From positions 1 to 9,604 of the forward strand of contig JALTID010000142.1 in NCBI GenBank assembly GCA_027004335.1: DNA of 9,604 nucleotides. Direction: 5' to 3'. The notes under the pieces are model-generated. The model did no database searches. It was not told where the DNA came from and worked only from the letters and a program-made list of their open reading frames with translations. The stretch comes from JALTID01 sp027004335 [NCBI: bacterium] (lineage in GTDB: Bacteria; JALSQH01). Of this stretch, positions 1 to 8,230 are shown piece after piece. Numbering within the stretch: position 1 is the first letter of the stretch; every line of letters starts with the position of its first letter. The position numbers were made by a program, and so were the translations under genes.

Positions 1-482
1 GTAGGAAGCCTGTCTATATCCAACTCCCCAGTTACCTGTACAACCCTCCTCCCATTCTCCGAAGTAAAAGCTTCCCACTTAACATTCTTAAAATACTTGT
101 AATTATCAAAGGCCTCTCCAACAGTGATTGACTTATCAAAATCCAGAATGCCACCTTTCACAAGAGCAACATCGCTTGTTGTTTCTTTTATTCCACTTGC
201 AAGAATCCCAACAAAAAACAGCCCGAAAAATCCCAGAACAATGACTCTTCGGGTTTGAGGAACATCAACAGGATGCTCCTTGGCTTTTTCGATTAGTTCT
301 TTTCTCTTTATTAGATAGAGAGGAAATCCAATGATCCACAGCAGCCAGGTTACTACTGCCCATCCCCCCGCAGACATATTTGTAAAGCTCTTCTCCCCTG
401 GAATTTTCCCTATCTTGTTCTTTGTTGCATCGTAATAAACCCAGAAGGCTGAAGCAATTATAATTAATGCTATGTAATTCAT
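1..482 (-). CDS. Small membrane protein of unknown function, partial (3' end beyond window)
   Basis: The reverse strand is open from an ATG at 482 to the window edge, giving 160 codons with no stop, so the C-terminus is missing. The start is supported by a purine-rich AAGGGGGG just upstream (complement of 486-493). The protein begins MNYIALIIIASAFWVYYDAT, a hydrophobic N-terminal segment, followed by a second hydrophobic stretch at about residues 43-63 (WAVVTWLLWIIGFPLYLI), a basic linker, and a third at about 83-103 (VIVLGFFGLFFVGILASGI). A soluble, probably extracytoplasmic part follows, with the phrase GGILDFDKSITVGEAFDNYK and a short WEAFTSENGRRVVQVTGE beta-like segment. Similar unnamed membrane proteins with a small beta domain seem familiar from proteobacterial genomes, but I do not recognise a function. 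It is divergent from the glycyl radical operon and has no evident link to it. Confidence 0.75.
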   Translation of the reverse strand, partial: MNYIALIIIASAFWVYYDATKNKIGKIPGEKSFTNMSAGGWAVVTWLLWIIGFPLYLIKRKELIEKAKEHPVDVPQTRRVIVLGFFGLFFVGILASGIKETTSDVALVKGGILDFDKSITVGEAFDNYKYFKNVKWEAFTSENGRRVVQVTGELDIDRLP

Positions 483-720: not shown

Positions 721-749
721 TTGACAATTAGGTTACTATATGCTATCCT
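721..749 (+). promoter_or_regulatory. Sigma70-type promoter of the regulator/glycyl radical enzyme operon
   Basis: A perfect TTGACA at 721-726 is followed after exactly 17 bases by TATCCT at 744-749. The latter matches TATAAT at four of six positions. It lies about 35 bases upstream of the regulator ATG, and no other convincing promoter is seen inside the following four genes, so it probably drives the whole operon. Confidence 0.65.
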
Positions 750-754
750 CAAAT

Positions 755-765
755 TGGTACGACCA
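755..765. promoter_or_regulatory. Candidate FadR/GntR-type operator overlapping the transcription start
   Basis: The sequence TGGT-ACG-ACCA at 755-765 is a perfect inverted repeat with a 3-base centre and matches the TNGTNNNACNA pattern of operators bound by the FadR branch of GntR regulators. It begins 6 bases after the -10 hexamer, where a bound repressor would block initiation. The next gene encodes a FadR-branch regulator, so autoregulation is the simple reading. The match and position are seen; binding is inferred. Confidence 0.6.
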
Positions 766-785: not shown

Positions 786-1523
786 ATGGATTTTCTGGGA
801 AAAATTGAGCCCTTGAAGCCCCAGAGGATTTCCGATGAAATTCTCAATATCCTGGTAGAAGAGATCCTAACAGGAAAATTTTCATCGGGTGACAAACTCC
901 CACCAGAAAGGATGCTGGCTGAAAAATTTGGTGTCCACCGCAACAGTGTAAGAGAAGCCATAAAAAAATTAGAAATGCTTGGCCTGGTAGAGGTTAAGCA
1001 GGGCAACGGCTCTCTTATAAAAGCCATAGATAAAGAGGGGAATATCCTTCTATTGGGATACATTTTTGAGCATCCAGAATTTGTAACTCTGAAAATTTTA
1101 AAAGATCTGCTGAGATTCAGATATCTTCTTGAGACAGATGCCGCAGAGCAGGCAGCAACAATGAGAAGCGAAAAAGAACTGGTTTTACTGAATGAAATCC
1201 TTTATCAGGAAGAGAGAAATTTCAGCAATTCACCAATTTTTTCTCAGCTGGATTATGAACTACATCAGCAGATTATTACTGCTTCAAAAAATGTAGTTCT
1301 TCAGCTTGTTATAAACTCTATAAAAAATACCTATCTCACTTTTTCAGGAATTTTCTTCAGTGAAGTAGAAGTGATCCCATTCGTATATGAAAGACATGTA
1401 AGGCTAATTGACGCAATAAAAGAAAAAAATGGGAAACTTGCAAGGAAAATAATGGAGGAACTTTTAATCCATGGAGAGGAACATCTCCTTAAAAAACTCC
1501 AGAAGGGAGGGAGCTATGAGTAA
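786..1523 (+). CDS. GntR-family transcriptional regulator, FCD-type (FadR branch)
   Basis: This 245-residue protein has the usual length of a FadR-branch GntR regulator. An N-terminal winged helix (about residues 12-80) carries the classic pattern SGDKLPPERMLAEKFGVHRN, then SVREAIKKLEMLGLVEV. The C-terminal all-helical FCD domain shows the RFRYLLETDAAE helix (111-121) and likely metal/effector ligands Asp156 and His160 (DYELH), His204 (ERHVRLIDAI) and His229 or His233. FCD proteins commonly bind carboxylates beside a divalent metal. I chose the ATG at 786 because GGAGGTGAT lies at 777-785, ending directly before it; a GTG at 774 in the same frame would place that ribosome site inside the gene. 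Its last 8 bases overlap the start of the glycyl radical enzyme gene, which indicates translational coupling and local control. A suitable operator lies at 755-765. The ligand is unknown, but the context suggests the substrate or product of the enzyme. Confidence 0.93.
   Translation: MDFLGKIEPLKPQRISDEILNILVEEILTGKFSSGDKLPPERMLAEKFGVHRNSVREAIKKLEMLGLVEVKQGNGSLIKAIDKEGNILLLGYIFEHPEFVTLKILKDLLRFRYLLETDAAEQAATMRSEKELVLLNEILYQEERNFSNSPIFSQLDYELHQQIITASKNVVLQLVINSIKNTYLTFSGIFFSEVEVIPFVYERHVRLIDAIKEKNGKLARKIMEELLIHGEEHLLKKLQKGGSYE
1505..1510 (+). promoter_or_regulatory. Ribosome binding site deciding the glycyl radical enzyme start
   Basis: GGGAGG inside the last codons of the regulator gene lies 5 bases before ATG 1516. 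This favours that ATG over the in-frame ATG at 1471, which would lengthen the protein by 15 residues and overlap the regulator by more than 50 bases. Confidence 0.6.
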
Positions 1524-3915
1524 AGAATCAGCAACAGTAAGAATCTGGAAACCCTCAGAAAAACTACCCCCCAGAATTAAGAAACTGAGAGATGAGTATT
1601 TTTCATTCTACGACAGAGATTATTTTAGAAATGAGGTGAGGGCATACACCACGGGAATGCCCGGTGATCCGGTATGGTCACCTCACAACTGGGGGGTAGT
1701 CCCCGAACTTTTTCCATTCATGAAAGGGATGTTTGATGCATTGAGAGCTTTGGCTGAAGAAGTTAAAGTGCCTGATGATTTCTGGAAACATACCATTGCA
1801 TATAGAAGAGGATTATTCTTTAAAATTGTTTTAGAAAAATATCTGCCGGTAAAAATCCTTGAGCAGGAGCTGATTGTAGGATCATATTTCAATACAGCCC
1901 TCTCCAAGGTTCTTAGACCTGATGAGCAAAAAGAGTGGTATAAAAGAGAATTCCGCTGGTATAAGAAACTTGAATTTTTAAATGATGTGGGAATTGGAAA
2001 TACCGGTGCAATCCCTGGACACATCATTCCCAATTATCCAAAAGTTTTAAAGATGGGTATGAAAGGGATCGTGGAGTATATTGAAAGTGAGATTGAGAAA
2101 GAAACAGATAAAGAAAAGATAGAGTTTCTCCAGTCCATGATTCTATCTTTAGAAAGTGCAAAGATGCTATCTGAGCGTTACAGCTGGGAGGCAAGAAAAC
2201 TGGCTCAGGAAGAAAAAGACCCTCAGAGAAAGGAAGAGTTAGAGGAGATCGCAAGGATCACGGCAAAAGTACCATGGGAACCAGCTGAAACCTTCTGGGA
2301 GGCGCTCCAGTCCATCTGGATTACCCATATGCTGGTGATGGCAGCTGAATCTTACCCGGGTGCAGGTTTATCCCATGGGAGATTTGATCAATACATGTAT
2401 CCCTACTACAAAAAGGATATTGAAGAGGGCAGGATAACAAAGGAATTTGCCAGAGAGCTTCTCATGGCATACTGGATCAAGCACAACTATGTGTATGATT
2501 ATCAAGGAAGAGTTGGGCAGAATCAGGGAATTAATTCCGGTTTTGGCCAGTTGATGACTCTAAGCGGGAAGGGTCCCAATGGTGAAGATATGACCAATGA
2601 GTTAACATGGTTGATTTTTGATGTGATTGAAGATATGAATTTACTGGAGCCAAAACCAAATATAAGAGTGCATAAAAATACCCCGGAACCCGTTCTCAAA
2701 AGGATCACTTCCATGGTAACCAAAACACAGGGCTCACCTTTCCTCATTAATTTTGATGAACAGGCAATTAAAGGACTTCTCTGGCAGGGGATGCCAGAAG
2801 AAGAAGTATGGGATTACGCTCCAGTAGGCTGTCTTGAAAATACTTTTCAGGGCAAGGATAGATCAGGAACAGTTGATGTGAATATTAATCTTTTAAAGGC
2901 CATAGAATTGACTCTTTTTAACGGCAGGGATATCAGAACAGGCAAAAGAATAGGATTGAAAACAGGTGACCCCAGAAAATTCAAAACATTTGAGGAGTTC
3001 AAACAAGCTTTCGTAAAACAGCTTAAATATATCATTGATAAACTTCTTGAACTTGCCATGGAGGCTGATGCCATAAGGGCAAAATTTGAACCCATTCCCT
3101 ATCTCTCTGCAATTGTTGATGGTTGTATTGAAAAAAGAAAGGATGTTACAGCAGGAGGCCCAGTGTACAACTTTATCACCGTGGAGGGGATCGGCCTTGC
3201 CAACACAGCTGACTCCCTCACAGCAGCTAAAAAACTTGTGTTTGAAGAGAAAAAGATTTCAATGGACGAGTTACTCTACCATATCCAGAATAATTTTGAG
3301 GGCAGAGAAGGTGAAAAGATCAGACAGATACTGATAAATAAAGCACCTAAATATGGCAATGATAATGATGAAGCTGATGCTATGGCACGATTTGTTTCGC
3401 AACTCTGGACAAAATATGTATTTACCAAAAAAAGTCCAACAACAGGAAGGAGATTTAGAGGAGGTTACCTCTCATGGAATTACTGGATAGCATACGCACC
3501 TGCTGTATCAGCCACCCCTGATGGTAGAAGGAGGGGAACATTTCTTGCCAATGCAATTGGACCTATTGACGGAATGGCAAAAAAAGGACCCACGGCGGAA
3601 GCACTTTCTGTGGGTAAATTAGGACTTGAAACAGCACCAAATGGGGATTCCCACACCATGAATTTCAGTCCTGCGATGCTAAGAGACGAAGAGCATGTAG
3701 AAAAAATGGCAAATTTCCTGAGAACTTATAACGAAAAAGGTGGCACTGCTCTGCAGATCAACATAATTGATGCTGATACACTGAGAGAGGCGCAGAAGCA
3801 TCCAGAAGATTACCAAAACCTTCTTGTAAGGATCACAGGCTACAATGCCTACTTTGTGATGTTAGGTAAGGAAATGCAGGATGAAATTATTGCAAGAGAA
3901 TCGCATAAGCTATAA
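1516..3915 (+). CDS. Glycyl radical enzyme of the PFL-like family (PflD / X-succinate-synthase-like or lyase; substrate unknown)
   Basis: The product is 799 residues, normal for the PFL-like family. The PFL domain spans roughly residues 15-670 and the glycyl radical domain the last 120. The thiyl-forming cysteine is Cys439 in DYAPVGCLENT, and the radical glycine is Gly775 in LVRITGYNAYF, followed by the usual EMQDEIIAR ending. Other family landmarks are GHIIPNYPKVLKMG (168-181), FDQYMYPYY (290-298), APKYGND (610-616) and SATPDGRRRG (665-674). The N-terminus (YFRNEVRAYTTG, SPHNWGVVPELFPF) differs from the typical start of choline or glycerol lyases and reminded me of alkylsuccinate/benzylsuccinate synthases and PflD-like proteins. 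The Glu two residues after Cys439 (Cys-x-Glu) is what dehydratases, decarboxylases and C-S or C-N lyases use as an acid-base. True pyruvate formate-lyase is unlikely because it has a Cys-Cys pair. The gene sits between its regulator and activase. The family is certain; the reaction is not. Confidence 0.92.
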   Translation: MSKESATVRIWKPSEKLPPRIKKLRDEYFSFYDRDYFRNEVRAYTTGMPGDPVWSPHNWGVVPELFPFMKGMFDALRALAEEVKVPDDFWKHTIAYRRGLFFKIVLEKYLPVKILEQELIVGSYFNTALSKVLRPDEQKEWYKREFRWYKKLEFLNDVGIGNTGAIPGHIIPNYPKVLKMGMKGIVEYIESEIEKETDKEKIEFLQSMILSLESAKMLSERYSWEARKLAQEEKDPQRKEELEEIARITAKVPWEPAETFWEALQSIWITHMLVMAAESYPGAGLSHGRFDQYMYPYYKKDIEEGRITKEFARELLMAYWIKHNYVYDYQGRVGQNQGINSGFGQLMTLSGKGPNGEDMTNELTWLIFDVIEDMNLLEPKPNIRVHKNTPEPVLKRITSMVTKTQGSPFLINFDEQAIKGLLWQGMPEEEVWDYAPVGCLENTFQGKDRSGTVDVNINLLKAIELTLFNGRDIRTGKRIGLKTGDPRKFKTFEEFKQAFVKQLKYIIDKLLELAMEADAIRAKFEPIPYLSAIVDGCIEKRKDVTAGGPVYNFITVEGIGLANTADSLTAAKKLVFEEKKISMDELLYHIQNNFEGREGEKIRQILINKAPKYGNDNDEADAMARFVSQLWTKYVFTKKSPTTGRRFRGGYLSWNYWIAYAPAVSATPDGRRRGTFLANAIGPIDGMAKKGPTAEALSVGKLGLETAPNGDSHTMNFSPAMLRDEEHVEKMANFLRTYNEKGGTALQINIIDADTLREAQKHPEDYQNLLVRITGYNAYFVMLGKEMQDEIIARESHKL

Positions 3916-4849
3916 TACTGATGAAAACTACGCTATGATCTTTAATATCGAGCGTTTCAGTACCGAAGATGGACCGGGGATAAGGACCACCGTCTTTTTT
4001 AAAGGATGCCCGCTTAAATGCCCATGGTGTCACAATCCAGAGAGTATTGACAGGAATCCTCAGCTTGTATGGTACTCAGTAAGATGTATTGCCACCATGG
4101 ATTGCATTAAAGCATGTAAAGAAAATGCCCTTCAGCTCACCCCCGAGGGGATGTACATAGACAGAATAAAATGTACCGCATGTGGTGATTGTGTTGAAGC
4201 GTGCCCATCAGGTGCTCTGGAGCTTATAGGAGAATATAAGAGTGTGGAAGAAATATTTGATGAGGTTATGAGGGACAACTCTTTTTACAAAAACTCCGAA
4301 GGAGGAGTAACCTTCGGAGGAGGAGAACCATTACTCCAGTATTACCCTTTAACCAGGCTTGCCATGATGTTCAAAGAAGCAGGTGTCCATACGGCTCTTG
4401 ATACTACTGCTTTTACTGCTAAAAAAATCCTAAATATGGTTCTTCCCTACATTGATCTTGTTCTTCTTGATCTCAAACAGATGGACCCAGAGCTTCATAT
4501 AAAATATACAGGAGTACCCAACAAAACAATACTTGAAAATGCAAAATATATTTCTCAGGTTCATAAGAAGAAGATCTGGGTGAGAACCCCTGTGATTCCT
4601 GGGTATACTGACCAGGATGAAAATATTGAAGCTGTGGCGAAATTCATTAAAGAAAATCTTCCCACATGTGAGCGTTATGATCTTCTTGCCTTTAACAACA
4701 CCTGCAAGGATAAATATGATAGATTGGGGATAAAATTTGAATTGGCTGACACTCCACTAATGAGGAGAGGAAGAATGCAGCAACTCCTTGATCTGGCAGT
4801 AAGAAAAGGAATCCCCACTACTTACTGGACAGGAACAGTTAGAGATTAA
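3881..4849 (+). CDS. Glycyl radical enzyme activating enzyme (radical SAM, ferredoxin-like insert)
   Basis: This 322-residue protein is a radical-SAM activase that uses S-adenosylmethionine to form the glycyl radical on the preceding enzyme. The SAM cluster motif is Cys43-x3-Cys47-x2-Cys50 in KGCPLKCPWCHNPES, preceded by RFSTEDGPGIRTTVF. The SAM-binding GGEP-type motif (TFGGGEPLLQYYP) begins near residue 144. A ferredoxin-like insert at 69-108 has a complete motif Cys98-x2-Cys101-x2-Cys104-x3-Cys108-Pro, but its first motif has only three cysteines, Cys69-x5-Cys75-x3-Cys79. The start is uncertain. ATG 3881 has AAGG 7 or more bases upstream and overlaps the enzyme gene by 35 bases. ATG 3935 (MIFNIERFS) would follow the enzyme stop by 19 bases and fits the usual activase N-terminus, but has a poor ribosome site. 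Pairing with the adjacent enzyme is inferred from the shared operon. Confidence 0.93.
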   Translation: MKLLQENRISYNTDENYAMIFNIERFSTEDGPGIRTTVFFKGCPLKCPWCHNPESIDRNPQLVWYSVRCIATMDCIKACKENALQLTPEGMYIDRIKCTACGDCVEACPSGALELIGEYKSVEEIFDEVMRDNSFYKNSEGGVTFGGGEPLLQYYPLTRLAMMFKEAGVHTALDTTAFTAKKILNMVLPYIDLVLLDLKQMDPELHIKYTGVPNKTILENAKYISQVHKKKIWVRTPVIPGYTDQDENIEAVAKFIKENLPTCERYDLLAFNNTCKDKYDRLGIKFELADTPLMRRGRMQQLLDLAVRKGIPTTYWTGTVRD

Positions 4850-4855
4850 GGAGGT
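4848..4855 (+). promoter_or_regulatory. Strong ribosome binding site for the split-barrel protein
   Basis: AAGGAGGT begins within the activase stop codon and lies 5 bases before ATG 4861. It is a near-ideal Shine-Dalgarno sequence and is stronger than the site before the activase, so this last operon gene may be made in higher amount than the activase. Confidence 0.65.
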
Positions 4856-4860
4856 AAACC

Positions 4861-5685
4861 ATGCTCTCAAAAGGAGCTCTTGAAATATTCAGAGGACCGT
4901 TAAATCCAAAATTTCTCGCCACTGTGGGTGAGGATGGAAGGCCCAATGTGGTTCTTATAATCTCCATCACTGCTCCCACAGATGATCATCTTGCTTTCGG
5001 GGAATTTATGATATGGAAAACAAAGAAAAATCTCCTGAACAATAATAAAATATACATATATGCCTTTACACAGAAGTTCAAAGCAACTGCAGGAAGAGCA
5101 CTCTTCAAGGGTTTTGTTAAAATGGGCCCAGAGGTTGACTATATAAACAACATGGATCTCTTCAGATACAACGCCTATACAGGAATAAGAAGCGCAGGGA
5201 TCATTCAGCCACTTTCAGAATTTCCCACTTTCAGAATACCAATAGTGTCCAGTCTTACCGGAATGGGATTACTTCAGGCAGGTAAGACACTTTTCAGGTT
5301 AACCAACAGAAAATCAGAGATTGAAATTCCAGAAGCAGTAAGAGAAAAATTTGATAAACTACTTGGCTTCAAAGTTATCTCTTTTGTAGAAGAAGACGGA
5401 TTCCCGGTAATTTTCCTCACCATGGCAATGAAACTTGTTGGAGATCATCTTATATTTCCCATCAACGGCCAGAACAAAAAAATTAAGAAGTTTCAAGAAG
5501 GTTCTCCTGTGGCAGTTGATATTCTTACTCTTGAACCAGCTTCCTATCAGCTCAAAGGAATATATGAAGGATACTCCCGCTGGGGGACTACCCCTGTAGG
5601 AAAAATCAAAGTCACAGAGGTGTATTCTGCTTCTCCTCCAGTACCGGGAAAGTTGATAAGCAGCGCAGAAGGAAGAGAACCTTAA
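4861..5685 (+). CDS. Tandem pyridoxamine-phosphate-oxidase-like FMN split-barrel protein
   Basis: This 274-residue protein appears to contain two related halves. The first (about 8-110) carries NPKFLATVGEDGRPNVVLI and then IWKTKKNLLNNNKIYIYAF, the usual pattern of FMN-binding split barrels, in which a K-x2-NL helix follows the second pair of strands. The second half (about 165-255) repeats it as LGFKVISFVEEDGFPVIFL, DHLIFPINGQNKKIKKF and PVAVDILTLEPASYQLKGIY. No signal peptide or membrane helix is evident, so it should be cytoplasmic. It follows the activase by 11 bases and so is the fourth gene of the glycyl radical operon. Split-barrel proteins bind FMN, F420 or haem, or act as reductases; which applies here is not visible. 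A role in supplying electrons to the activase, or in handling the enzyme's substrate or protecting it from oxidants, is an inference from position only. Confidence 0.78.
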   Translation: MLSKGALEIFRGPLNPKFLATVGEDGRPNVVLIISITAPTDDHLAFGEFMIWKTKKNLLNNNKIYIYAFTQKFKATAGRALFKGFVKMGPEVDYINNMDLFRYNAYTGIRSAGIIQPLSEFPTFRIPIVSSLTGMGLLQAGKTLFRLTNRKSEIEIPEAVREKFDKLLGFKVISFVEEDGFPVIFLTMAMKLVGDHLIFPINGQNKKIKKFQEGSPVAVDILTLEPASYQLKGIYEGYSRWGTTPVGKIKVTEVYSASPPVPGKLISSAEGREP

Positions 5686-5705: not shown

Positions 5706-5871
5706 CAGATAATAATTCCCTTTAACAACCTGATCGTTTTGATATAACCATATTGGTGATTTGATAGTCTCAACGACAGATATGTGAGATGGCGAAGCAC
5801 AGGAGAGACAAAAAATCTTTTCCTCTGCAGGTCATACCTACCAAAAATTGTGGTGGAAATTGGGCAGATCG

Positions 5872-5890
5872 ATTGTATACATTATACAAT
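5872..5890. promoter_or_regulatory. 19-bp perfect palindrome abutting the icd promoter (candidate operator)
   Basis: ATTGTATA (5872-5879), a CAT centre, and its exact complement TATACAAT (5883-5890) end one base before the -35 hexamer of the isocitrate dehydrogenase promoter. The size and placement suit a dimeric regulator, either an activator at about -45 or a repressor covering the -35 region. The GTATAC core is reminiscent of GntR-family operators, but no specific regulator can be assigned. Confidence 0.55.
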
Positions 5891-5891
5891 T

Positions 5892-5919
5892 TTGACATCA
5901 ATCTCATCCTCAATATAAT
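5892..5919 (+). promoter_or_regulatory. Near-perfect sigma70-type promoter of icd
   Basis: TTGACA at 5892-5897, a 16-base spacer and TATAAT at 5914-5919 are both exact consensus hexamers. A start near 5926 would give a leader of about 25 bases carrying the GGAGGTGA ribosome site (5939-5946) before ATG 5951. This shows the gene is transcribed separately from the upstream operon and fixes the start codon downstream of the longer open frame. Confidence 0.8.
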
Positions 5920-5950
5920 AGAAGCAAATCAATTTGATGGAGGTGAAAAT

Positions 5951-8194
5951 ATGGAAAAGAGGAAGCCTCTAATTACATGGACCAAGGTTGACGAAGCTCC
6001 CTATCTTGCAACATTCTCACTCTTACCAGCAGCGGAAAAGTTTATCGCAGCTGCAGGAATAGATATTGAAATTAAAAATATCTCACTTGCTGGAAGGATA
6101 CTTGCAACATTCTCCGAATATCTCACAGAGGATCAAAAAGTTCCTGATGATCTTGCTGAGTTAGGGGATAGGGTAGTAAATGACCCCTACATAAATCTTG
6201 TAAAATTACCCAATATCAGTGCTACGGTGGTTCAGGCAAAAGATGCAGTGAAGGAACTTCAGAAGAAGGGATACAAACTTCCTGATTATCCTGAAGAAGT
6301 TAAAACAGAAGAGGATAAAAAAATCCTTGAACTTTATTCAAAGGTGATAGGCAGTATCGTAAACCCCATCATCAGGCAGGGGAATAATATCAGATCTATA
6401 CCTCTCCCCGTTAAAGAAAGCGCAAGGAAATACCCCGACCAGATGGCTGGACTCCCCCTCAAAGACTGGGATAAAGGTTCAAAAACACATGTATCCCATA
6501 TGGATGGCGGAGATTTCTACGAAAATGAAAAATCTATAACTTCTCCGAAAGCTCAAAAAGTCAAGATTTACTTCCTTGATGAAAATGGTAATAAGAAGGA
6601 AATGAAGGCTCTTGAACTCATAGAGGGGGAAGTAATGGACTCCACATATATGGATGTCAGAGAACTCCAGAAATTCTTTGAAAGAGAAGTGGAAGACGCA
6701 AAAGAAAAAGGTGTCCTCTGGTCTGTACATCTTAAAGGCACCATGATGAAAGTTTCTGATCCCGTCATTTTTGGCTATGCAGTCAGAGCTTACTTCAAAG
6801 ACCTCTTTGAAAAATATGGGAAAGAGTTAGAGGAGATAGGATTTAACCCCAATGAAGGGCTTACAGGACTTTATAAAAAATTAGAAAAGGTTCCAGAGGA
6901 GAAAAGAAAAGCCATACAAGATGAAATCCAGAAGATCTATGATAAAAATCCCCCCATGTACATGGTTGACTCCAATAAGGGGATCACAAATTTACACGCT
7001 CCCAATCTGGTAATAATTGACGCCTCTATTCCACCCATTATCAGAGATGGTGGCAAAGCATGGGGACCTGATGGTAAACCTCATGATGTAAAAATAATCG
7101 TTCCAGACCGAAGCTACGGAACTTCATACAAAGAAATTGTTGCGGATTGCAGAAGAAATGGAAAATTTGATAGAAAAACCATGGGCTCAGTAATGAATAT
7201 TGGACTTATGGCAATGAAGGCTGAAGAATATGGTTCCCATGACAAAACTTTTATCGCTCCATCTGATGGAACTTTTCAGGTTGTGGATGAAGAGGGAAAT
7301 GTTCTTATGGAACACAAAGTTCAACAGGGTGACATCTGGAGAGGATGTCAGGTAAAGGACATAGCGGTGAAAAATTGGGTTCAGATCGCAGTGGGAAAGG
7401 CAAGAGAAACCGGAAACACCACCATATTCTGGCTGGACAGAAACAGGGGACACGATACTCAGCTGATCAAAAAAGTTGAAACATATCTCAAAGATTACGA
7501 CACCAGTGACCTTGATATAAGAATTCTACCACCTCCGGAAGCAATGAAGATCACAGTGGAAAAAGTAAGAAAAGGGGAGAATGTGATAGCGGTCACAGGA
7601 AATGTTCTCAGGGATTATCTCACAGACCTTTTCCCTATTCTTGAGGTTGGTACCAGTGCCAAAGTTCTATCTGTTATACCTCTTCTTAATGGAGGTAATC
7701 TGGTAGAAGCAGGAGCAGGTGGCTCTGCTCCAAAACATGTGTGGCAGTTCCTAGATGAAGGACATTTAAGATGGGACTCCACAGCTGAATTCACAGCACT
7801 TATTGAAGCTCTGAGGTTCATAGCTCAAAAATATGACTATCCAAAGGCAAAAATCCTTGCAGATACCGCAGAACAGGGCTTAATAAAACTCCTCCTCAAT
7901 AAGCAGTGGCCATCAAGAAAAGTTGGGGAGCTTGACACCAGAGGAGAGCATTACTACTTCATAAGATACTGGGCGGAGAATTTAGCTGCCCAGAATGATG
8001 ATGAAGAGCTGAAGAAAAAATTTGAAGCTCCTGCAAAAGCTCTTGCTGAAAATGAGGAAAAGATTTTAAATGAACTACTTGCCGCTCAGGGAAAACCAGT
8101 TGACATCAATGGTTACTACTTCTCCGATGAAGAAAAACTGGCAAAAGAGATGAGGCCAAGCCCCACCTACAACTCCATAATTGATTCCATGTAA
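5951..8194 (+). CDS. icd: NADP-dependent isocitrate dehydrogenase, monomeric type (IDH-II)
   Basis: The protein oxidises isocitrate to 2-oxoglutarate and CO2 with NADP+, in the cytoplasm. At 747 residues it matches the large single-chain family. Using the residues I remember from the Azotobacter vinelandii enzyme, the substrate set is present: Ser135, Asn138, Arg142 and Arg148 in [15 protein letters not shown], Lys262 (HLKGTMMK), Tyr427 (EEYGSHD), and Arg554. The metal aspartates are Asp357 (IIDAS), Asp555 and Asp559 ([10 protein letters not shown]). The NADP-selecting His596 (APKHV), Arg607 (HLRWDS) and Arg656 (WPSRK) are also there, predicting NADP rather than NAD. The segment GNNIRS departs from GNSDRR as I recall it from relatives, but keeps the key arginine. 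ATG 5951 is chosen because GGAGGTGA lies 4 bases upstream and the promoter lies just before it; the frame is open from 5789 but that part is not coding. The gene ends at a terminator, so it is monocistronic. It supplies NADPH and 2-oxoglutarate. Confidence 0.96.
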
Positions 8195-8199
8195 TCCTC

Positions 8200-8230
8200 A
8201 GGCGGGTCTTACGACCCGCCTCTTTTACTT
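8200..8230 (+). terminator. Rho-independent terminator after icd
   Basis: A perfect stem GGCGGGTC (8201-8208) with GACCCGCC (8213-8220), extendable by one A-T pair to 8200/8221, has a TTAC loop and is followed by the T-rich TCTTTTACTT. It begins 6 bases after the isocitrate dehydrogenase stop. The opposite strand lacks a T-tract, so it acts in the forward direction only. Confidence 0.92.

What the first reader, a model, noticed from the sequence alone, without database searches (positions are those of the whole stretch)
786..5685. Self-contained glycyl radical operon: GntR regulator, enzyme, activase and a split-barrel flavoprotein
Seen: four plus-strand genes with overlaps of 8 and probably 35 bases and an 11-base gap, behind one promoter. 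Known: characterised glycyl radical operons usually add a signature partner, such as small FeS subunits (benzylsuccinate/alkylsuccinate synthase, hydroxyphenylacetate decarboxylase), microcompartment shells with dehydrogenases (choline, propanediol), or transporters. None is here; the only extra partner is a tandem split-barrel protein. Inference: this may be a distinct catabolic or detoxifying system whose substrate is sensed by the FCD-type regulator.
Basis: partly seen in the sequence, partly recalled or inferred. Interest (0 to 1): 0.7.

Follow-up and report, generated by a model that had tools for sequence, protein, structure and literature searches.

The report
Unknown glycyl radical enzyme with flavoprotein partner
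This operon encodes an oxygen-sensitive radical enzyme of an unassigned branch that, in many uncultured anaerobic bacteria and about four in ten of the Asgard archaea sampled, nearly always comes with one small flavin-type protein, so it looks like a common but uncharacterised anaerobic reaction.

Summary
In detail: GntR/FCD regulator, glycyl radical enzyme (GRE), activase and tandem split-barrel protein form one tight operon (overlaps 8 and 35 bases, gap 11). The GRE reaches no NCBIfam cut-off and forms one fully supported clade apart from CutC, HypD-like, HpsG-like, HPAD and PflB rows. It keeps the eliminase C-x-E motif, but glycerol-dehydratase substrate residues are replaced. The split barrel is a signature partner: same strand, downstream of the GRE in 68 of 84 loci. 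Ten of the 16 misses end within 2.3 kb of the GRE; the six with room all carry a copy elsewhere in the genome. In 148 genomes of an Asgard phylum both occur in 58, GRE alone in 6 (all cut by contig ends), split barrel alone in 7. The regulator is optional (4 of 84), but all four have a single TGGTNNNACCA palindrome in front. Best guess: a self-contained radical eliminase plus an FMN oxidoreductase acting on its product. Substrate, cofactor and partner role are not shown; a redox partner for activation is nearly as likely. New variant of a known kind.

The parts
721..749 (+). promoter-like site TTGACA-17-TATCCT
   Evidence: Pattern scan, not above chance in number; a TTGAC hexamer also precedes the palindrome in L036, L035 and L073 (read).
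755..765 (.). TGGTACGACCA palindrome, probable operator of the GntR/FCD protein
   Evidence: Only match in the window, 0.12 expected. TGGTNNNACCA occurs once in each of the four GntR-bearing loci, just before the GntR gene (in L073 if the gene starts at the ATG at 3990). Binding not tested.
786..1523 (+). GntR/FCD-type transcriptional regulator (245 aa; the ORF finder's first start is GTG 774, but a GGAGGTGA ribosome-binding-type sequence precedes ATG 786)
   Evidence: GntR and FCD Pfam domains over cut-off.
1516..3915 (+). glycyl radical enzyme (799 aa) of an unnamed clade; C439, E441, H169, radical-site G775
   Evidence: PFL-like and Gly_radical over cut-off; below all NCBIfam cut-offs; tree; invariant residues over 45 relatives.
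3881..4849 (+). GRE-activating radical SAM enzyme with ferredoxin-like cluster domain (322 aa)
   Evidence: TIGR02494 335.6 bits over cut-off 174; Radical_SAM and Fer4 domains; CPLKCPWC motif read in the translation.
4861..5685 (+). tandem split-barrel, probably FMN-binding protein (274 aa), signature partner of the GRE
   Evidence: AF2 model; structure matches to FMN-binding protein and HupZ; co-occurrence.

Best explanation
The operon is a self-contained radical elimination system. Shown by sequence: a GRE, its activase and a tandem split-barrel protein that co-occur as a conserved module. Inferred: (1) the activase puts the radical on Gly775. (2) The radical passes to Cys439, which takes a hydrogen atom from a small polar substrate held near His169; Glu441, two residues after the cysteine, acts as base, as in glycerol dehydratase, choline lyase and hydroxyproline dehydratase. 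A leaving group (water, amine or other) is lost and a carbonyl or imine results. (3) The split barrel binds FMN between its two barrels and reduces or oxidises that product; it is the only dedicated downstream enzyme, which explains why no transporter, dehydrogenase or shell genes recur. (4) In this and a few other genomes an FCD-type repressor sits on TGGTNNNACCA at the promoter and is released by a substrate- or product-derived acid.
For: GRE signature and activase over family cut-offs. C439, E441 and H169 invariant in 45 relatives and aligned with C433, E435 and H164 of glycerol dehydratase (the roles of those residues are recalled). Best PDB sequence matches are eliminases (1r8w 405 bits, 9rco 395, 5i2a 385), and the predicted structure ranks with them (Z 40.0-35.8; one choline-free CutC chain 32.7), ahead of or level with decarboxylases (35.3-33.8), fumarate adders (33.7-30.8) and PFL (29.7). 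The split barrel is constant while no other neighbour recurs outside related lineages. Domain 1 resembles an FMN-binding protein (Z 14.9, rmsd 2.0 over 113 residues). Further flavoprotein-type genes sit beside the module in some lineages (weak).
Against: Glycerol-dehydratase substrate residues H281, S282 and D447 are A283, G284 and V453 here. Arylacetate decarboxylases also have C-x-E (GCLE in HPAD rows L144 and L147), so the motif does not prove elimination. The structural gap to the best decarboxylase is small against some eliminases. FMN binding is not shown: sequence links are weak (PNPOx_N under its cut-off in P0002), and HupZ, the best match by Z, is a heme protein (recalled). In three genomes the split barrel pairs with the activase away from the GRE, which fits an activation role at least as well. 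No substrate, product or ligand is known.
Confidence: 0.42

Rival explanations
1. The split barrel is a dedicated redox partner of activation: an FMN electron carrier that reduces the activase's iron-sulfur cluster, or quenches or repairs the radical. The GRE reaction itself needs no flavin.
For: Activase and split barrel stand side by side away from the GRE in L134, L135 and L137 and in L154 without a GRE on the 8 kb fetched. The closest folds include the small Desulfovibrio FMN-binding protein (its electron-transfer role is recalled). Activases need an electron to cleave SAM (PMC11528403, passages).
Against: GRE and split barrel stand together with no activase in the fetched region in L033, L034 and L037, and in L076, L084, L088 and L090, whose contigs end at or soon after the split barrel. 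No match near 25 other GREs or 15 reference loci on short flanks, so other activases do without it. The near-invariant RY(N)AY stretch of domain 1 (R102, Y103, Y106) suggests a specific ligand or partner.
Confidence: 0.33
2. The GRE is a decarboxylase of an arylacetate-like or other acid rather than an eliminase.
For: C-x-E is shared with HPAD rows. Arylacetate decarboxylase 7e7l aligns at Z 35.3, rmsd 2.6 over 712 residues.
Against: Indoleacetate and hydroxyphenylacetate decarboxylase models score 312 and 247 against cut-offs of 1100 and 1150. HPAD rows form a separate branch. No small FeS subunit gene was seen in the window.
Confidence: 0.13
3. It is a fumarate-adding (alkyl/benzylsuccinate) synthase, as some Asgard GREs have been read in print.
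For: PMC8163825 (passages) assigns Hermodarchaeota GREs to Ass/Bss, partly because they have one cysteine only. Whether those sequences belong to this clade was not tested.
Against: 193 bits to TutD and 227 to MasD against 405 to glycerol dehydratase; two other GREs without the Glu after the Cys score 383 and 380 to TutD. The clade has Glu at C+2. Structural Z 33.7-30.8. No synthase small-subunit genes in the window.
Confidence: 0.05
4. It is a pyruvate or 2-oxoacid formate lyase.
For: PFL-like Pfam domain. PMC7015854 (one passage) says the cultured Asgard archaeon MK-D1 has 2-oxoacid-formate lyases; whether its gene is of this clade was not tested.
Against: E. coli PflB has two adjacent cysteines where the clade has Gly-Cys-x-Glu. 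PFL model score 106 against cut-off 994. Lowest structural Z among the GRE groups listed apart from ribonucleotide reductases (29.7).
Confidence: 0.04

Closest known systems
B12-independent glycerol / 1,2-propanediol dehydratase (PDB 1r8w, 5i2a, 9rco)
   Same: Best sequence and structure matches (405-385 bits; Z about 40); shared Cys, Glu at C+2 and His.
   Different: About 30% identity; substrate-binding His/Ser and Asp replaced; no microcompartment or dehydrogenase genes; split-barrel partner instead.
trans-4-hydroxy-L-proline dehydratase HypD (NF043068; PDB 6vxc)
   Same: Stand-alone eliminase type; 465 bits; 370 bits to the solved chain.
   Different: Far below cut-off 1100; separate branch.
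Choline trimethylamine-lyase CutC (TIGR04394)
   Same: Cys and Glu at C+2; RIH stretch and a His at the SHT position.
   Different: 398 bits against cut-off 1050; separate branch.
Asgard (Hermodarchaeota) 'Ass/Bss' GREs of PMC8163825
   Same: GREs of Asgard archaea with a single active-site cysteine (passages).
   Different: Read there as fumarate-adding; our clade has C-x-E and scores low to such enzymes. Identity of the two sets was not tested.
LssP of the limonenylsuccinate synthase operon (PMC12583861)
   Different: That GRE is a fumarate-adding synthase; LssP's sequence was not at hand, so homology is untested.
Desulfovibrio vulgaris FMN-binding protein and HupZ (PDB 1wlk, 5esc)
   Same: Same single split-barrel fold as domain 1 (Z 14.9 and 16.4).
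   Different: One barrel instead of two; 17-22% identity; no known link with a GRE (recalled).

Membership tests
Glycyl radical enzymes | C-terminal glycyl radical loop | tested here: met
   Gly_radical 92.8 bits over cut-off 22.2; T774-G775-Y776-N777 invariant in 45.
Glycyl radical enzymes | Active-site cysteine in the finger loop | tested here: met
   C439 invariant in 45, aligned with C433 of glycerol dehydratase.
Glycyl radical enzymes | Cognate radical SAM activase | tested here: met
   TIGR02494 over cut-off; activase on the same strand in 68 of 84 loci. Activity not tested.
Glycerol/diol dehydratase-type eliminases | Glu at C+2 as base | tested here: met
   E441 invariant in 45; shared with decarboxylases, so not exclusive.
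Glycerol/diol dehydratase-type eliminases | Substrate-binding His281, Ser282, Asp447 (glycerol dehydratase numbers, roles recalled) | tested here: not met
   A283, G284, V453 in the alignment; an Asp follows at 454.
Glycerol/diol dehydratase-type eliminases | Elimination activity | not testable with these tools
   Needs anoxic enzyme assay.
Named NCBIfam GRE equivalogs (HypD, HpsG, HpfG, CutC, IAD, HPAD, PFL) | Score over the curated cut-off | tested here: not met
   best equivalog HypD 465 of 1100; subfamily TIGR01774 535 of 678.
Pyruvate formate-lyase | Two adjacent active-site cysteines | tested here: not met
   GC-x-E in the clade against CC in PflB.
Fumarate-adding synthases (Bss/Ass/Mas) | Close similarity to solved synthases | tested here: not met
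   193 and 227 bits to TutD and MasD, against 405 to glycerol dehydratase.
Fumarate-adding synthases (Bss/Ass/Mas) | Small accessory subunits | tested here: inconclusive
   None among window ORFs of 60 aa or more; shorter ORFs and the rest of the genome were not searched for them.
Aminoacyl radical enzymes (PMC11528403) | Radical glycine replaced by another residue | tested here: not met
   G775 is glycine in 45 of 45; definition from passages.
PNPOx-like split barrels | Split-barrel fold | tested here: met
   Domain 1 Z 16.4 to HupZ and 14.9 to FMN-binding protein. Domain 2 not searched on its own.
PNPOx-like split barrels | Pfam family score | tested here: inconclusive
   24.9 bits, cut-off 28.1; 47 of 55 relatives match PNPOx_N at E 0.01 or better.
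PNPOx-like split barrels | Bound flavin | not testable with these tools
   Needs purified protein.
FadR/FCD-type GntR regulators | GntR DNA-binding and FCD domains | tested here: met
   68.2 and 66.5 bits over cut-offs 27 and 24.3.
FadR/FCD-type GntR regulators | Binding to an inverted-repeat operator | tested here: inconclusive
   TGGTNNNACCA in front of 4 of 4 GntR-bearing operons; binding itself not tested.

The most novel reading that the evidence does not exclude
A first flavin-coupled glycyl radical system: GRE, activase and tandem FMN split barrel form one functional unit in which the flavoprotein is obligatory for the radical cycle or immediately transforms the radical product. It would be one of the commonest GRE systems of Asgard archaea and uncultured sediment bacteria, some of whose GREs have been read as hydrocarbon-activating or formate-lyase enzymes.
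Probability: 0.3. Interest if true: 0.85.

Novelty: new variant of a known kind. Interest (0 to 1): 0.66.

Why it matters
GREs carry out hard anaerobic chemistry, and new branches tend to open new substrates. This branch is in 64 of 148 genomes of the phylum of a Helarchaeote and in 13 named phyla among the 80 best loci, yet it passes no named NCBIfam GRE model. GREs of Asgard archaea have been read in print as alkyl/benzylsuccinate synthases or 2-oxoacid formate lyases. If those belong to this clade, which I could not test, statements about hydrocarbon use and formate metabolism in the closest archaeal relatives of eukaryotes need another look. A nearly constant flavin-type partner also gives a concrete handle: three genes can be co-expressed and assayed.

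Tried and rejected
Viral contigs: 34 pattern matches, none encoding a relative. Plasmids: 142 records, all under 60% identity. Neighbourhood clustering beyond the three genes gave lineage-bound synteny (Thorarchaeota) and scattered genes; apart from the lead below I saw no other gene recur across lineages, and no recurrent transporter, CoA-transferase or shell gene, but most neighbour clusters were judged by eye from sequence starts and only ten neighbour proteins were run against Pfam. An acyl-CoA dehydrogenase-like gene lies on the fetched stretch in 11 of 84 loci, mostly Actinomycetota and Dehalococcoidia, and inside the operon in L042 and L049. It was kept as a lead only, because the loci are related and in L047 it is on the other strand. 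Substrate prediction from residues was tried and given up: the pocket differs from every reference row. No 16S gene was found in the window's genome, so its phylum is unknown.

Literature: ten searches, all used. GRE with split-barrel and with pyridoxamine 5-phosphate oxidase gave 0 papers; GRE with FMN-binding gave 2, seen in the listing only. The second term misses the usual spelling with a prime, and PMC12583861 shows that a relevant paper exists, so absence from print is not shown. PMC13101534 was looked at (passages) and is not about such a protein.

Known weaknesses. Genes in relatives were called by a home-made codon score, not a gene finder. 'GRE' rows past residue 800 are split-barrel hits (a file held two records) and were ignored. 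Flanks in the control are about 1.5 kb, against up to 10 kb for the clade. The tree is a quick one (SH-aLRT only), thinned to 18 of 45 aligned clade members, and lacks glycerol dehydratase, YbiW, PflD, isethionate lyase and Bss rows. Only 10 of the 25 unnamed reference GREs were scored against NCBIfam; other HypD-like and HpsG-like rows are grouped by motif and branch. The phylum is unnamed by the tool; I take it to be Asgard because G106 holds L037, titled Candidatus Helarchaeota. L028 and L031, used as a yardstick for fumarate adders, are themselves not proven to be such (their scores to eliminases are as high).

Full report
What is in the window. Pfam identifies a GntR/FCD regulator, a GRE (PFL-like plus Gly_radical) and a radical SAM activase with ferredoxin-like domains; the fourth protein has only a sub-threshold PNPOx_N match. 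One Gly_radical match was found in this genome of 1.5 Mb, 80% complete. The next gene is monomeric NADP isocitrate dehydrogenase (TIGR00178, 1030 bits over cut-off 950) behind its own consensus promoter, so probably a separate unit.

Which GRE it is. It reaches no NCBIfam equivalog cut-off, nor that of the broad subfamily TIGR01774 (535 against 678). Among 98 genomes (the window's own and relatives) five carry a GRE with 46-100% identity aligned over nearly its whole length (708 bits or more); the next best has 444 bits, about 40% identity over a part. Of the 80 record titles, 79 begin with MAG. In a quick maximum-likelihood tree of 51 rows, 18 clade members form one branch with SH-aLRT 100 and stem length 0.72, apart from CutC (3 rows over cut-off), HPAD (3 over cut-off, 1 like it), a HypD group (6; L007 scored over cut-off), an HpsG pair (L015 scored over cut-off), the IAD-like row L017 and E. 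coli PflB.

What its active site says. In an alignment of 45 clade members C439, E441, H169 and the loop T774-G775-Y776-N777 are invariant. Against glycerol dehydratase, C439, E441 and H169 match C433, E435 and H164, whereas H281, S282 and D447 fall on A283, G284 and V453 (the roles of those residues are recalled). The clade has its own marks: ESYPGxG with extra residues, NFDE with one extra residue, GYLSWNY and PNGxSHT, where the reference rows read otherwise (CutC shares the His and PflB the following Thr of the last one). PflB has a double cysteine, the clade does not. The predicted structure (pLDDT 89.6) ranks with eliminases (Z 40.0-35.8; one choline-free CutC chain 32.7), then arylacetate decarboxylases (35.3-33.8), fumarate adders (33.7-30.8; tied at the edge) and PFL (29.7). 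I conclude that it works like a C-x-E eliminase, with a decarboxylase as rival, but is not a member of any named family tested.

The split barrel is a signature partner. Of 84 loci (the window, three from unnamed relatives and the 80 scanned) 68 have it on the same strand downstream, and 68 have the activase. Of the 16 without a split barrel, ten sit on contigs that end within 2.3 kb of the GRE. The six with about 10 kb of room (L046, L087, L099, L104, L112, L114) all carry a full-length copy elsewhere in the genome; the genomes of L080 and L091, whose contigs end early, gave none; the other eight were not tested (16 genomes given, 14 with a match). In the 98 genomes the five with the clade GRE are the five with a split barrel over 60 bits; the best elsewhere is 57 bits over part of the first barrel. 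In 148 genomes of the phylum of G106 (genome of L037, a Helarchaeote; I take it as Asgard) 64 carry the GRE at E 1e-140 or better and 65 the split barrel at 1e-10 or better: both 58, GRE only 6, split barrel only 7, neither 77; Fisher p 4e-26, not corrected for relatedness. Fifty of 64 split-barrel hits compared (all but six weak or partial ones) lie within 2 kb of a GRE hit. The exceptions: in all six GRE-only genomes the contig ends downstream of or within the GRE or in the activase. Of the seven split-barrel-only genomes, two have weak single-barrel hits only, two have the gene at a contig end, one has a GRE remnant directly upstream of activase and split barrel, one an activase-split-barrel pair, one a single-barrel gene without either. 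Near 25 other GREs and at 15 reference loci no match was found, on short flanks.

How the parts move. GRE and split barrel stand together without an adjacent activase in L033, L034 and L037, and in L076, L084, L088 and L090, where the contig ends at or soon after the split barrel and an activase beyond it is not excluded. Activase and split barrel stand together away from the GRE in L134, L135 and L137; L132, L133 and L136 have the split barrel alone. The split barrel is thus tied to the system rather than to one neighbour. A short, single-barrel form exists beside clade GREs (L034 with 140 residues; G124, G148, G167), so the tandem form may have arisen by duplication or fusion of a dimeric barrel (inference).

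What the split barrel may do. The model is confident (pLDDT 93.4). Domain 1 matches HupZ (Z 16.4, rmsd 2.4, 118 residues), swol_0183 (15.6, rmsd 3.0, 125) and the Desulfovibrio FMN-binding protein (14.9, rmsd 2.0, 113 residues, 22% identity). Over 55 sequences K17, N29, K232, G233 and P260 are invariant and K53, N57, R102, Y103 and Y106 nearly so. FMN is the likeliest cofactor but not shown. I favour an oxidoreductase acting on the GRE product because this partner is constant while little else is. Weak support: some lineages place further flavoprotein-type genes beside the module: acyl-CoA dehydrogenase-like (Pfam-tested in L041, L042, L043, L048, L055, L059), ferredoxin-nitroreductase (L078 tested; like genes in L080 and L082) and FAD oxidoreductase (L111 tested; a like gene in L102). 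The rival, an electron donor or other helper of activation, is nearly as likely.

Regulation. The GntR gene is next to the GRE in 4 of 84 loci (window, L036, L035, L073). In each of the four, TGGTNNNACCA (its own reverse complement) occurs once in the whole locus of 9.6-17 kb, just before the GntR gene (for L073 if the gene starts at ATG 3990). In the window 0.12 matches were expected, and 22 of 200 shuffles had at least one, so it is the recurrence at the same place that carries weight. A TTGAC hexamer lies upstream in all four. This is good evidence for autoregulation and none for the ligand.

What is in print. PMC8163825 (passages) reads Hermodarchaeota GREs as Ass/Bss, partly from the single cysteine. 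PMC6258724 (passages) says some Guaymas GREs group with no characterised enzyme. PMC7015854 (one passage) credits MK-D1 with 2-oxoacid-formate lyases. PMC12583861 (passages) reports LssP, a putative pyridoxamine-phosphate-oxidase-type protein of unclear function in the limonenylsuccinate synthase operon, the only GRE operon with a possibly similar partner that I met. None of those sequences was placed on my tree.

Verdict. Its chemistry class is moderately supported; its substrate and the role of its partner are open. New variant of a known kind.

Noticed in passing
window 5789-8194 and 5892-5919: The isocitrate dehydrogenase ORF is listed from 5789, but a perfect TTGACA-16-TATAAT lies at 5892-5919 and the family match starts at residue 58, so the gene probably starts at the ATG at 5951 with its own promoter. 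A terminator-like hairpin follows at 8200-8221.
   Followed up: partly
window 3-482, minus strand: A protein of about 160 residues, membrane-like at its N-terminus and running off the window, with no Pfam or NCBIfam match.
   Followed up: no
L039, L040, L041, L043, L047, L048, L064: The same 35-base GRE-activase ORF overlap as in the window recurs in seven Actinomycetota loci (starts are the ORF finder's). In L043, L048 and L064 the activase aligns from residue 1. May point to operon transfer or strict translational coupling.
   Followed up: no
genomes, e.g. G205 (locus L164): A second group of about 27 Asgard-phylum GREs at 46-51% identity and about 835 aa, with a more distant split barrel (about 130-160 bits), looks like a subfamily of its own; one member, G205, sits in a single contig of 4.36 Mb.
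   Followed up: partly
L042, L049: An acyl-CoA dehydrogenase-like gene is inserted between GRE and activase on the same strand in both Dehalococcoidia loci.
   Followed up: partly
L078, L080, L082: A ferredoxin-nitroreductase-type gene follows the GRE in three Anaerolineae-type loci.
   Followed up: partly
L077 11686-12805: The activase is matched by two separate ORFs, so it may be frameshifted or broken in this MAG.
   Followed up: no
G124, G148, G167: These genomes also carry another GRE at about 41% identity that aligns only from residue 161 on, possibly the nearest sister group of the clade.
   Followed up: no
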